From the NCBI GenBank assembly GCA_033182465.1, contig CP137327.1, positions 1,736,001-1,800,000 on the forward strand: a stretch of 64,000 bases of DNA, read 5' to 3'. Below the pieces are notes generated by a model. That model was given only the letters and a program-made list of their open reading frames with translations. It had not been told where the DNA came from and did no database searches. This DNA is from Sanghuangporus weigelae. Lineage: Eukaryota > Basidiomycota > Agaricomycetes > Hymenochaetales > Hymenochaetaceae. Of the stretch, positions 27,325-34,143 are shown one piece after another; within the stretch, counting starts at the first letter, position 1; the number at the start of each line of letters is the position of its first letter. The position numbers were made by a program, and so were the translations under genes.

Positions 27325-27620
27325 TGTTGGAATCCAAATCGACGAAGTCCTGATCAAGGAATACCTGGAGCACGTGTCTCGGACTGATTTTCTTTCTCGG
27401 TTTATTTTACAGTCGCTATTCGACTTAATTGTTTCATACTTCCGCTTTGTTTCTGTTACTCCTCTATGATGTATTATATTCATCCGATAAATGTCTCGCG
27501 TCTACTTCATTTACAACATACAGAAAATCTATAAATATGTAGTCCATTCCTCATGTATTTCCTTAGTTACCGAATCAACTAGCTGCGTGCTCGAATCATT
27601 CGCTCGCTCCCCTGCTCAGA
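27325..27620 (+). repeat. Left LTR of the copia element
   Basis: Begins TGTTGG. It ends CTCAGA if the ATCAT duplication is taken at face value, so the terminal CA lies two bases in. Same sequence as 33848-34143 as far as I can compare. A TCTATAAATA box lies inside (about 27528). Confidence 0.92.
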
Positions 27621-27631
27621 GGTTATGAGCC
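27621..27631 (+). other. Primer-binding site matching the initiator tRNA-Met anticodon arm
   Basis: GGTTATGAGCC begins at the first base after the left LTR. It is the reverse complement of the GGCTCATAACC anticodon stem-loop of initiator tRNA-Met. Drosophila copia and yeast Ty5 are known to prime from a half tRNA cut in that loop. The assignment rests on sequence complementarity alone. Confidence 0.75.
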
Positions 27632-30600
27632 TTGGCTTTCACTGTGCTTGAGATCCGCTTTGTTTAGTCAAGACGAATTTGGTTTTCAAGAATGACTACC
27701 AATCAATATGCATACGACTTGCTTACCAGTGCTGTACCAAAACTTGAACCTTCGGGGGAAAACTGGGCTATCTTTTCGTATCGTTTCGAAGACGCTGTTC
27801 GTGCCAAACGCATCTGGGGCCATTTTGATGGCACTTCTACTCGTCCTGGACCTGCTGCAGCGACTGCACCTTCAGGGACGCAACTAGGGCCTCAGCAATG
27901 GCCACCTATAGGAACTGGGAGTGCGCTTGGCACAACGCAGCCCCCGGGCACTTCATCCTCGACCCCAGCTGCACCGCAAGCTCGTCGAGCAACGAGATCC
28001 CAGACCCAGCCAGCAGCAGCAGCAACAGCCGCTCCAGCTACTCAGACACAACCGCAGGTGACTGGAACAGTCCCTCCAGCTCAAATGCCCTTGCCGCCTT
28101 CTGCTCCATCTATGCCGATGCCTCCTACTGCAGAAGAAAAGAATGCTCAGCAAGATTGGGACAATAGCGAAGCCTTGTCCCAATACTTACTTTTGCAAAG
28201 GATTCCCGACTCAACTTTAATGCGTGTCTGCCAATTCCCCACTGTCACGCAACGATGGACCACAATTGTCATTGAGTACACAGACAAGTCTATGTATGCT
28301 CAAACGTCCCTCAAAGCCGAATTCCTTGAGTCGAAGTGTCCTAAAGGATCAAATGTCAAAACCTTTCTGTCAGATCTACGTTCTAAACGAGAAACACTCA
28401 CCCAGTCTGGTGTAACTGTTTCGGATGATGATTTCCACTCTACAATCATCTCTAGCTTGCCTAGACACCTAACCAAATTTGCATCAGTGCAAATAACTTC
28501 TGCTGAACTTACTACTAGAAATGCCGCTGCTATGTTTGGCTTGCAGCTACCCCCCGGTGCTCTTCAAGCTATGCGAACTGTCGATCCTGACGTCCTGATT
28601 CATATAGTCTCTGACGAATCTGAAAGAGAAGCCAAGGAACGCAAAAAACGAATTACGAATCGTGATCAGAAGCAGAATATGAACAGCAAAGTCAAAAACA
28701 AAGCACTCACTGTTCAAAATCACCCAAGAGACACTCAAACTTGCTATAACTGCAATAGAACTGGGCACATTGCAAAGTACTGCCGCTTGCCTCGCAAGGA
28801 CAGAAATCGTCAGAATGGTTCGAACAAACGAAACGAGCCAAGGAACTCGCCGAAAGAGAAGGAATCAAACGATTCTGCAAGGAACGCTGCCAATGCAGCT
28901 GTGGATTCTGATTCAGAATTGGATTGGGCCTGTTTTGCCCAGGATCGGTGGGAGAAATATGGAAATGAGCCTGATGAGGCTGTCGACTTGCACAGGCACA
29001 TTACATGTGCATCTGGATTCGAAGATTGGCTCAACAAGCCATTCGAGTACTGTGGAGGAAAGCAAGAGATCAGTGTAATAACTGAGCTAGCAAATAAAAT
29101 ATCAGACGCACCTGATTCTTCTGGAGAACTTGAGGAGTGCAAGGTTATCCTCGACTCTGGAGCTATGAAACATTTATCACTGTATAAAGAAGATTTTGTT
29201 GAACTTCGGCCCATTGAACCGAAGCCATTCGAGATGCTCAACAAGCCGATCCACATTGTAGGAATCGTGACACTTGCTATAGACATGCCAAATGGACATG
29301 CCGTAACCAGATTGAACATAGAAAATGTTCACTACACACCTGGTTCCCCTTACATGCTCTTGTCTACTGGTTCCTTTGATCGATCTGGCTTCACGTACTC
29401 TGGTGGAAATGGAACCTGCAGTTTTTCCGACTCAACTGGACGTCAGATCGCTTTGCTGAAGCTCACAAAGAATGGTCTCTACAAGTTTACTCATCAGCCA
29501 ATAAAGGATTGGAGGGACAAGGTTTTACTCACTGACGACAAGATGTCTGTAAAGATACTTCATGCTAGACTCGGACACATCTCACCTGTTTCTGCCATGC
29601 AAATGGTGAAGGATGGTGTAATTCTAGGAGTAAAACTTGACAAAGCTTCTCCTTGGTTGGCTTCTTGTGAATCCTGCATCTATGGACATGCCACTCGAAA
29701 GGAAATTTTGAAGACCAGAGCTGGTGAACTTGCGAAGAAATTTGGTGATGAGATCCATTCTGATCTCTGGGGGCCTGCACCTGTTCAGTCAATAGGAGGA
29801 AAACAATACTATGTTATCTTCACTGATGATTCAACACGCTACTCCGCGATTTTCATCCTTCGTTCCAAGTCACAAACCCTAGATGCATATAAAACCTTCG
29901 CAAATTGGTGTTTTACTCAGCATGTAGCAAGAATCAAACATTTTCATTCCGATCGAGGCGGCGAATTTACTGGAACCCAATTCGTCAATTTCTTGAACTC
30001 TCAAGGAACTGAACAAAAACTCACCACACATGATACTCCTGAACACAATAGTGTCACCAAATGCCTGAATAGGACCATCGGAGAAAGAGTTCCATTGATG
30101 CTACACGCAAGTAGCCTGCCGAAAAATTTATGGGCCGAATGTGCAAAGCATGCCATCTGGCTAAAGAATAGAACATCAATAAAAACTTTGGAAGGACAAA
30201 TGCCATTTGAAGCACTCACCGGTGTGAAGCCGAACCTATCTGGGCTTCAAGAATGGGGTACTAAGTGTTGAGTACATGACAACACCAATTCCAAACTTGA
30301 CAGACACGCCCGTGAAGGTCGTTGGCTCGGTTACGATCTCAATTCAAATGGCTCCCGCATTTATTGGCTCGAAACGAAATCTGTATCTGTCAAAAGGAGC
30401 ATCTATTTCTCACCTGAATCTGCAGAGTTGGACCATTTTGAGGGGGAGAACCCGCAACCGTCATTAACATCAAGCAGATTACGAAATTTTGAACCAAATG
30501 ACGCTCACCAAGACAAAATGGCCCCAACTCATTCAGACGACAATTCCCAACGTGAAGGAAGAGTCAGAAAGACATCTGCCTATGTGAGGCGAGTCATGGC

Positions 30601-31693
30601 TGGTGGTGGCGAGCTCTCAAGAGCAATGCAGACGAATGCCGCAGCAGTAGCTGCAGATGTGACCGATGAAAAGGAGGATGGTTTTGATGACGAATACGCC
30701 CTCGCTGCAGTGATGGATCTTGAGGATCCAGTGGAACCAAGGACGATTCAGGAGGCCAGAAGTCTATCAGAATGGCCCTTATGGGAGAACACTATAAAGG
30801 AGGAGCTGGGAGCTTTAGAAGCTGCTGAAACGTGGGAGGTTGGATATGCACCTAAAGGAGCCAACATCGTGGGCTCCAAATGGGTCTTCAAGGTCAAGAA
30901 GGACTCTTCGGGCAAGCCTGTACGCTATAAAGCGAGGCTAGTTGCACAAGGATTCAGCCAAGTACCAGGAGTCGATTTCTTTGGAATGTATGCACCTGTC
31001 GCAAAACTGTCCACCGTTCGAACGATCCTCGCAATGGCCGCCCAATTTGACATGGAAATTGAGCAAATCGATGTCAAAAGTGCTTACCTGAATGGGGAAT
31101 TCAAAGATGGGGAACAAATCTACATGAGGCTGCCTCCGGGATATGGGATGGACAAGATGATGGTGTACAAACTACAGAAACCAATTTACGGCCTAAAGCA
31201 GTCTGGTCGTAAATGGTACCAAAAAGTCACGTGGATTCTTGTCAATCAACTCGATTTCAAATGCAGTGATCTCGACCTCGGAGCTTTCTACTGTAGGGAT
31301 GGGGACGATCTTATTGTGATCGTCATTCACGTTGACGATTTTACAATCGCCACTGATCGACACAGTCAAATCTTGGAATTCAAGTTTCGCCTTTGAACTT
31401 TCGTAGAAATCTCAGACTTAGGTGAACTAAACTGGCTACTGGGCATCAAAATTAATCGAAATTGTCTTCAAGGAACTATCAGCCTCTCTCAGCATTCCTA
31501 CATTGAATCTATACTTTGCAGGTTTAATTTCGACCAACTCAAAACTGTCAACAGTCCTATGGATCTGAACATTCGTCTCAGTACAGCCCAGACGCCTTCC
31601 ACCTCGGAAGAACTTGGTATAATGCGCAACGTACCTTACAGGGAGTGCATTGGCTCTCTTATGTATGCTTCTTTGGCTACCAGGCCTGATATC

Positions 31694-33232
31694 TGTTAGG
31701 ACCAGTGTTTTTAGACGAGGTGGTCAGTCTAAGCGTACCGGAACAAGTCCCTGCTTATTCCTTCTGATGATAATTGATTGGAGACGGAACGAAGGTTATA
31801 GATGTACTACTTTAGAAGCGAGCGATAGGCTCAAGCTTGACCTCAGTAGTGGAACAGGGTTTCAATCAAAGGGTACAGTTTTCGATTGAGAGTACAAAAT
31901 AATTTTGCTGAGGGACAATGCCCCGCTCAGCTGGCCCTTAAATAACCTATTTACTAAATAGTACCGACTACCTATTACTACCGACTACAGCCTTGCTATT
32001 GGTCTAGACAATATGTTTTCTCTGACACCAGTACTCTACTCTGGTGCCAACACCGATACTTTCCTCTAGTGTTGAATCACAATACTTCTACCATATTAGG
32101 AGGGTTTGTTTGAGTCCTACTACCCCGATGCTTCGAGAAGCTTCTTCCGTGCTTCCTCCGATCTGCAATTGTTATCACATGTTAATCTCTCCTTATCTTT
32201 ACCCCGCGATCCTTCTCCGTTCCCAGACGGGTTCCCATGATAGTTGCCAAGCTATCGCTTCTCTGGCGCTCCGTTCCCGGGCCGAGCTTCTGCCGCTTAA
32301 TCCTCGATCATGGGGGAGATAGTGATATCAGGGTTAGAGATCGGCAGAGCTTGCCGATCTTCTCCCGGCGCATGAGTGTACTCCGCTACACTCCTTCTGT
32401 GCCTCGCCGCGACTTCGATGTCCGATAGTTGTAGTCCTGGGCCCGTGGTTAGCCGTAGCCTCTGTCCAAAGTGCTCGCGGCCATTCCACTCGTCAACTGT
32501 AATTACCCCTGGCTCTGACGCTCGCCAAGCCTGCATCAAGCGTTCTATCGCTTCTTCCGTAAGATGTTCAATGTCCGAAGGTGGCCGCTTGTAAACTGGC
32601 CAATCTACTTCCACTGCCGTGTGACTGCACAAGGTCTGGTGCCGATGCTGATTGATCCAAGCTCGCACGCCGACCTTTAATGCATAGACATCCCTATCGC
32701 TAAGCCATATGGATACCTCATGGTCGTATGCACTCATTCCGTGGTTCGGTAATGGTTGGTCTTCTGTTCGTTCCGAGGGTCCGGGCTTATGCCGAATCTT
32801 GACATCGGCTGCTTCCCTTGACACTAACCGTTCCGTGAAGTTCTTCATGAGCCATTCCGCAAGTACCCAGCTTCGTTGGTAGGCCAAGTAACAATTGGCG
32901 CACACCAAGCTCTCATGTACAAATCTTCTAGTTGCACCACGCCGATAATGTCTTCGTTGCAGGAGTTCCGTATACCTTGCGATATTCCTTTCTTCCATCG
33001 CCGCCAGACTGCGTTCCGGCGGTGGAGTATGTCCAATGTGCATATTAGTTAGTCCTAATTGCAAATCATTAGAGTCCTCCGTGTCTTCTCCAGACGATCC
33101 GTGGTTTGCTACTCTTGAGTCGCCACCACTGTTCTGCCGTAGTAGCCTTTCGAAATAGTCTTGATTTGGCATCGCAACTCGGTGTGTAAAATTTAGCCCA
33201 CGCCGTATTAGATAACCACAATTTTCGTAACA
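31694..33232 (-). mobile_element. Nested 1539-bp LTR-like insertion with 5-bp target duplication
   Basis: It interrupts the copia reverse transcriptase within its RPDI(A)FAV motif. The 5 bp ATATC are repeated at 31689-31693 and 33233-33237, and removing insertion plus one copy restores the reading frame. The ends are TGTTAGG and CGTAACA, the TG...CA form of LTRs, forming a short imperfect inverted terminal repeat. I see no internal direct repeat, so it is either a solo LTR of a large element or a non-autonomous LTR-type element. It contains a 291-codon open frame on the minus strand. The given strand is that of the open frame; the element's own polarity is not known. Confidence 0.85.
32297..33172 (-). 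CDS. Intact 291-codon ORF inside the nested insertion, function unknown
   Basis: The frame starts with an ATG 60 bp from one end of the insertion (MPNQDYFERLL) and runs without a stop for 876 nt, occupying 57 percent of it. The product is hydrophilic. It has an acidic Ser/Asp-rich N-terminus, a central CANCYLAYQRSWVL segment with a CxxC pair, and helical charged stretches (HLTEEAIERLMQAW). I recognise no Gag, protease, RT or transposase motif. An open frame this long in a solo LTR is unusual. It may be an LTR-borne accessory gene, or a chance frame in a young GC-balanced element. Confidence 0.4.
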   Translation of the reverse strand: MPNQDYFERLLRQNSGGDSRVANHGSSGEDTEDSNDLQLGLTNMHIGHTPPPERSLAAMEERNIARYTELLQRRHYRRGATRRFVHESLVCANCYLAYQRSWVLAEWLMKNFTERLVSREAADVKIRHKPGPSERTEDQPLPNHGMSAYDHEVSIWLSDRDVYALKVGVRAWINQHRHQTLCSHTAVEVDWPVYKRPPSDIEHLTEEAIERLMQAWRASEPGVITVDEWNGREHFGQRLRLTTGPGLQLSDIEVAARHRRSVAEYTHAPGEDRQALPISNPDITISPMIED

Positions 33233-33838
33233 ATATCGCTTTTGCGGTCACCTTGCTCTTGAAATTTTCTATTAAACCTGGTTTGCCTCACTGGGAAGCT
33301 GTTAGGCGTGTATTTGCCTATCTGAAGGGTACCAAAGAACTTTGGTTAACTTACGGAGGTGTGGATTACAAGGAACTGAAGGGTTTTACCGATGCGGATG
33401 GAAGTGTTCAAGAAGACTGTTGTGCGATCTCTGGAAATGTTTTTCTAATTAACAGGGGCGCTGTTTCATGGTACTCGAAAACTCAGGAGCTTGTTTCTCT
33501 CTCTACTACGGAATCCGAATACATCGCAGCCGTTCATGCTGCGAAGGAAGCGATCTGGCTCAAACAACTTATTACTCAAATCTTCGAAGCATCGCCAGAA
33601 CCTACAACAATTTATTTGGATAATAAATCAGCTATACATCTTACCCAGAACTGTCAATTCCGTGCAAGAACAAAGCATATCGACGTCCGCTACCATTTCT
33701 TACGCTGGGCTTGCGAAAACGGCAAAGTCAAACTTATTTATTGTCCTACCGAAGATATGACAGCCAACGTCCTTACGAAACCTCTTCCTGGCTTCAAGGT
33801 CAAACATTTTGCATTCGAATTAGGACTCCGCACGATTT

Positions 33839-33847
33839 GAGGGGGAG
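33839..33847 (+). other. Polypurine tract of the copia element
   Basis: GAGGGGGAG abuts the right LTR and overlaps the pol stop codon. This is the plus-strand primer position in LTR retrotransposons. Confidence 0.8.
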
Positions 33848-34143
33848 TGTTGGAATCCAAATCGACGAAGTCCTGATCAAGGAATACCTGGAGCACGTGT
33901 CTCGGACTGATTTTCTTTCTCGGTTTATTTTACAGTCGCTATTCGACTTAATTGTTTCATACTTCCGCTTTGTTTCTGTTACTCCTCTATGATGTATTAT
34001 ATTCATCCGATAAATGTCTCGCGTCTACTTCATTTACAACATACAGAAAATCTATAAATATGTAGTCCATTCCTCATGTATTTCCTTAGTTACCGAATCA
34101 ACTAGCTGCGTGCTCGAATCATTCGCTCGCTCCCCTGCTCAGA
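33848..34143 (+). repeat. Right LTR of the copia element
   Basis: 296 bp, apparently identical to the left LTR, followed by the ATCAT duplication at 34144-34148. Confidence 0.92.

What the first reader, a model, noticed from the sequence alone, without database searches (positions are those of the whole stretch)
31689..33237. Nested LTR-like insertion with an intact 291-codon reading frame
A 1539-bp segment with TG...CA ends and a perfect 5-bp duplication (ATATC) sits inside the copia reverse transcriptase. It lacks Gag-Pol and internal LTRs, yet 57 percent of it is one uninterrupted ATG-started frame on the minus strand with a CxxC-containing, otherwise unrecognisable product. A protein-coding solo LTR, or a non-autonomous LTR element carrying its own gene, would be unusual. 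The insertion boundaries are seen directly; the coding status is inference.
Basis: partly seen in the sequence, partly recalled or inferred. Interest (0 to 1): 0.75.

Follow-up and report, generated by a model that had tools for sequence, protein, structure and literature searches.

The report
Retrotransposon end-repeat carries a protein gene
A lone end-repeat left by a large fungal retrotransposon contains an intact, evolutionarily constrained protein gene, a layout best known from a mouse retrovirus, so remnants usually thought inert may each keep a working gene.

Summary
In detail: window 31694-33232 is a 1539-bp solo LTR (TG..CA ends, perfect 5-bp duplication) inside a copia element, with an intact 291-codon frame on the minus strand. 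It does not come from a non-autonomous element. It is the LTR of a ~12.2-kb Ty3/Gypsy chromovirus with 13 clear two-LTR copies plus many solo LTRs in this 33.9-Mb genome. The frame is sense to gag-pol. An 11-nt match to the primer-binding site and a TATA-like box predict the mRNA start at LTR nt 1324, so the frame (nt 61-936) lies in U3, like the sag frame of mouse mammary tumour virus. Codon evidence shows purifying selection: 62 of 62 full-length copies at ≥97% identity lack stops; variants shared between copies are 31 silent to 22 replacing; 12 older copies give dN/dS 0.11-0.30. A second LTR family has a homologous frame at the same place. A third, abundant, pol-related family has its own selected U3 frame, sharing only a CxxC...Hx2-3C pattern. 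Best reading: a U3-encoded accessory, perhaps zinc-binding, protein. Its transcript and function are inferred, not shown. The paper searches made here found no such gene described in a fungal LTR element.

The parts
31694..33232 (-). Solo LTR (family 1, 1539 nt); sense strand of the element is the window's minus strand
   Evidence: TG..CA ends, 5-bp duplication, 40 scored genome copies at 99-100%
31689..31693 (.). Target-site duplication, left copy (ATATC)
   Evidence: Read directly
33233..33237 (.). Target-site duplication, right copy (ATATC)
   Evidence: Read directly
32297..33172 (-). U3 protein gene, 291 codons plus stop, LTR nt 61-936
   Evidence: Open in 62 of 62 full-length copies at 97% or more; codon-level selection
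31910..33232 (-). Predicted U3 (LTR nt 1-1323)
   Evidence: Inferred from the self-priming match and TATA-like box
31899..31909 (-). Predicted mRNA 5' end and self-primer (LTR nt 1324-1334), complementary over 11 nt to the primer-binding site found 2 nt past the 5' LTR of full elements
   Evidence: same pairing and same 216-nt distance to the LTR end in an older element
31937..31944 (-). TATA-like box (LTR nt 1289-1296), 35 nt before the predicted start
27325..34143 (+). Host copia element into which the LTR inserted (LTRs 27325-27620 and 33848-34143)
   Evidence: LTRs 100% identical; RVT_2

Best explanation
Shown: the segment is a solo LTR of an autonomous, recently active Ty3/Gypsy chromovirus; its LTR carries a 291-codon gene in sense with gag-pol; that gene has evolved under purifying selection. 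Well supported: the gene lies in U3, upstream of the element's own core promoter, so each transposition copies it into both LTRs, LTR-LTR recombination leaves it in the solo LTR, and in the genomic RNA it is the last gene. Inferred: it makes an accessory protein, perhaps zinc-binding through C91, C94, H178 and C182, that works in trans for the element, most likely by regulating its expression or countering host silencing (about 0.35 for that role). Also inferred: its mRNA starts from a separate promoter just upstream of the 3' LTR or early in U3, not from the main start; an MMTV-style splice over about 9 kb would be unusual in a fungus (recalled). The stated confidence is for a selected protein gene located in U3, not for the role.
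Against: No transcript or protein evidence. No promoter for the U3 gene was found, and the first 60 nt of the LTR are its most variable part (13 of 60 columns, against 82 of 876 and 66 of 603). Private variants are less skewed (20 silent:28 replacing, p 0.047), as expected for copies no longer under selection. Overall diversity is no lower in the frame than downstream (0.0098 against 0.0093 per site). One match to a young copy had 0 silent and 3 replacing differences. Several old copies have stops or frame breaks. The comparisons share one reference and related copies, so p-values are rough. No homologue outside this genome was seen; other fungi could not be searched.
Confidence: 0.87

Rival explanations
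1. The frame is coding but not in U3: the real mRNA start lies within the first 60 nt of the LTR, so it is a 5' gene of the genomic RNA translated before gag.
For: The ATG lies only 60 nt into the LTR, and two further frames with signs of constraint lie between the 5' LTR and gag.
Against: 11-nt self-priming match at nt 1324 with a TATA-like box 35 nt before it, kept in an older element; a 12-nt match at nt 1243 with a TATA-like box at nt 1210 in family 3.
Confidence: 0.08
2. A chance open frame in a young non-coding LTR; copies are intact only because they are recent.
For: Most copies are 98-100% identical, so few stops are expected from age alone.
Against: Codon-position bias and dN/dS 0.11-0.30 against older copies; silent excess in shared variants; a homologous frame in a second family; no simulated frame as long.
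Confidence: 0.02
3. A non-autonomous LTR element, or a captured host gene moved by gag-pol from elsewhere.
For: The window copy alone has no gag-pol.
Against: 13 two-LTR elements, with gag-pol in the one read in full. A remote host origin of the gene is not excluded: no cellular homologue was found in Pfam, but other fungal genomes were not searchable.
Confidence: 0.03

Closest known systems
Mouse mammary tumour virus sag/naf frame in the LTR (passages of PMC9412291)
   Same: A protein frame within U3 of a long LTR, sense to gag-pol, present in both LTRs; MMTV uses a second U3 promoter (P2) for it, a model for expression here.
   Different: Retrovirus of mice, not a fungal chromovirus. Sag was not compared by sequence here; the superantigen role makes no sense in a fungus (inference).
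Fungal chromoviruses with additional ORFs (PMC2864245, passages and section 5)
   Same: Chromodomain Gypsy elements of fungi, 4.4 to over 13 kb, some with an additional ORF of unknown function in the figure legend.
   Different: The section read places no ORF in an LTR; the figure itself is not held, so the position of the 'add. ORF' was not seen.
Self-primed Tf1/Tj1 elements (passages of PMC4600332)
   Same: Primer-binding site complementary to the mRNA 5' end; chromovirus-type pol.
   Different: No LTR frame is mentioned in the passages seen.
crapaud of Podospora (passages of PMC10787394)
   Same: U3 varies as a module relative to the rest of the LTR; L021 here is a mosaic with a divergent stretch of about nt 300-1000.
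   Different: crapaud LTRs are 339-443 bp and no coding frame in U3 is mentioned in the passages seen.

Membership tests
Ty3/Gypsy chromovirus | Gag with CCHC knuckle | tested here: met
   Retrotrans_gag and zf-CCHC above cut-off
Ty3/Gypsy chromovirus | Protease, RT, RNase H, integrase in Ty3/Gypsy order | tested here: met
   gag-asp_proteas, RT_RNaseH, Integrase_H2C2, rve; RVT_1; order read
Ty3/Gypsy chromovirus | Chromodomain after integrase | tested here: met
   Chromo, E 9e-14
Ty3/Gypsy chromovirus | TG..CA LTRs and 5-bp target duplication | tested here: met
   24 of 60 fetched copies are solo LTRs with a perfect 5-bp duplication
Self-primed (Tf1-like) elements | Primer-binding site complementary to the mRNA 5' end | tested here: inconclusive
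   11-nt and 12-nt complementarity to the LTR in two families and in one older copy; the mRNA 5' end itself is not known
MMTV-type U3 accessory gene (works like) | Protein frame wholly in U3, sense to gag-pol, under coding selection | tested here: met
   the U3 border is predicted, not measured
MMTV-type U3 accessory gene (works like) | Sequence homology to Sag/Naf and superantigen activity | not tested
   Not compared; no Pfam family above cut-off for the product
One protein family across LTR families 1, 2 and 3 | Significant sequence similarity | tested here: inconclusive

The most novel reading that the evidence does not exclude
A lineage of fungal chromoviruses carries fast-evolving U3-encoded zinc-binding accessory proteins (three LTR families here, over 200 scored matches). 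Because the gene sits in the LTR, recombination that deletes gag-pol leaves a gene-bearing solo LTR, so the genome keeps a dispersed supply of a trans-acting element protein, which could help or restrain the remaining full elements.
Probability: 0.45. Interest if true: 0.85.

Novelty: new variant of a known kind. Interest (0 to 1): 0.72.

Why it matters
LTRs are usually treated as non-coding promoter repeats and solo LTRs as inert scars. Protein genes in U3 are known to me mainly from vertebrate retroviruses (recalled; MMTV seen). Codon-level selection on U3 genes in fungal Ty3/Gypsy elements would mean this layout exists outside retroviruses, that solo LTRs can carry genes, that LTR divergence in such families is not a neutral clock, and that repeat masking can hide a protein family present in many copies.

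Tried and rejected
Structure: AlphaFold of the window protein alone gave mean pLDDT 37.9, unusable, so no fold search was made. PDB sequence searches gave weak hits, mainly p53 at E 0.016 and above and a designed scaffold at E 0.013 (single sequence) and 0.0015 (profile); p53's zinc residues (recalled) do not correspond and I take these as chance. Pfam: DUF7419 at E 0.05 over 16 residues, below its cut-off, rejected. IMG/VR: 20 stretches matched a pattern, none confirmed; that collection does not sample fungi. Splicing: one GTAAGT 71 nt after the family 1 LTR, no such donor pattern in the first 2000 nt after the family 3 LTR, so no shared splice model is supported. Homology of family 3's frame to family 1's by profile: not shown.

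Literature: nine searches, eight of them on this question (all but 44). In the listings I saw no fungal LTR element with a protein gene in U3; hits for 'LTR ORF' were mostly MMTV, and the Talaromyces paper uses the phrase for gag-pol frames (passages). A grass paper hit (PMC1560396, passage) concerns a gene inside an element, not in an LTR. Most subscription papers are not held, so absence in print is not established.

Full report
The observation. The 1539-bp segment 31694-33232 has TG..CA ends, a perfect ATATC duplication and a 291-codon ATG frame on the minus strand at 32297-33172. None of 2000 first-order Markov simulations of the LTR held a frame that long; the longest was 230 codons. It lies in a copia element whose own 296-bp LTRs are identical, after its RVT_2 domain.

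What it is. The segment occurs at 40 scored places at 99-100% identity (113 candidates, 40 scored). In the protein search, 13 pairs of copies lie in one orientation as element ends: 12 at 10,663-10,665 bp and one at 12,006 bp. I fetched 60 of the 62 full-length copies at 97% identity or more. Of the 60, 24 are solo LTRs with a perfect 5-bp duplication (the window's among them) and 26 are the ends of the 13 pairs. Of the other 10, three (L039, L054, L079) are cut by a family 3 LTR; two (L052, L067) look like the two ends of one more element about 39 kb apart, both with AGCAC at the outer edge; four (L063, L069, L078, L080) are ends next to internal sequence without a matched partner; one (L043) has no matching flanks. 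LTRs are identical in 8 of 13 pairs, so the family moved recently. The element at C5:854073-866274, read in two pieces, encodes frames of 308 and 628 aa, then Gag, protease, RT, RNase H, integrase and chromodomain, on the same strand as the LTR frame. It is a Ty3/Gypsy chromovirus and the LTR frame is sense.

Where in the LTR. The sequence 2 nt past the 5' LTR is complementary over 11 nt to LTR nt 1324-1334. In self-primed Tf1/Tj1 elements the primer-binding site is complementary to the mRNA 5' end (passages of PMC4600332). A TATA-like box lies at nt 1289. An older element, 84.5% identical over LTR nt 757-1539, keeps the 11-nt pairing and the same 216-nt distance to the LTR end. Family 3 shows a 12-nt match at nt 1243, also 2 nt past its LTR, and a TATA-like box at nt 1210. 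The frame at nt 61-936 is therefore predicted to lie wholly in U3. The mRNA start itself is not measured.

Selection. All 62 copies at 97% or more that cover residues 1-290 or 1-291 lack stops. Among 59 full frames (45 distinct), variants found in two or more copies are 31 silent to 22 replacing (expected silent share about 0.29, one-sided p 1e-5) and private ones 20:28 (p 0.047); none of the 101 is a stop, where about 4% would be expected. Older copies: 12 matches of 149-291 codons give dN/dS 0.11-0.30, with silent differences up to 0.59 per site; a 53-codon piece gave 0.32, a 23-codon piece was saturated, and one match to a young copy had 0 silent and 3 replacing differences. Of the 12, some have stops or frame breaks today, as expected of dead copies; two (L020, L021) are open throughout. 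Codon-position differences in ten comparisons are 319/224/597 inside the frame and 206/227/200 in the same phase downstream. Position three is highest in 10 of 10 for family 1, 5 of 5 for family 2 and 5 of 5 for family 3. For family 3 the small downstream control was itself uneven (21/5/20, p 0.005), though not toward position three. All comparisons share a reference within a family, so p-values are rough. Overall diversity is not lower in the frame (0.0098 per site) than downstream (0.0093): the signal is in the codon pattern.

Mechanism. The best reading is an accessory gene embedded in U3, as MMTV's sag/naf frame is (passages of PMC9412291). Each transposition copies it into both LTRs, and LTR-LTR recombination keeps it in the solo LTR. 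Within one LTR it lies upstream of the core promoter, so it needs a start of its own, just upstream of the 3' LTR or early in U3; none was found, and the first 60 nt of the LTR are its most variable part. C91, C94, H178 and C182 suggest zinc binding. A regulatory or anti-silencing role is my guess at about 0.35; no family, fold or transcript evidence tests it.

Novelty. In its core the element is an ordinary chromovirus. A survey of fungal Gypsy elements mentions additional ORFs of unknown function; the section I read places none in an LTR (PMC2864245). In the searches named in Tried and rejected I saw no fungal LTR element with a U3 protein gene. I rate it a new variant of a known kind.

Noticed in passing
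L018:3683-4606 and L018:2379-4259 (minus strand): Two extra frames (308 and 628 aa) between the 5' LTR and gag of the family 1 element, no Pfam family above cut-off; against an older copy dN/dS is 0.22 (no stop) and 0.31 (3 stops).
   Followed up: partly
L021:2-1540 (C1:1175901-1177439): Mosaic LTR: of 64 differences to the window copy most lie at about nt 300-1000, with few elsewhere, as if a frame segment from a diverged lineage had been swapped in.
   Followed up: partly
G000:C6:1181508-1214483: Family 3 LTR frames in a row of four at exactly 10,779-bp steps, suggesting tandem elements sharing LTRs.
   Followed up: no
L039, L054, L079: Family 3 LTRs inserted into family 1 LTRs, so family 3 moved after these family 1 insertions.
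   Followed up: no
window 27325-34143: Copia element with 100% identical LTRs whose coding frame is nevertheless broken by stops at about 30271 and 31396, before the inserted LTR.
   Followed up: no
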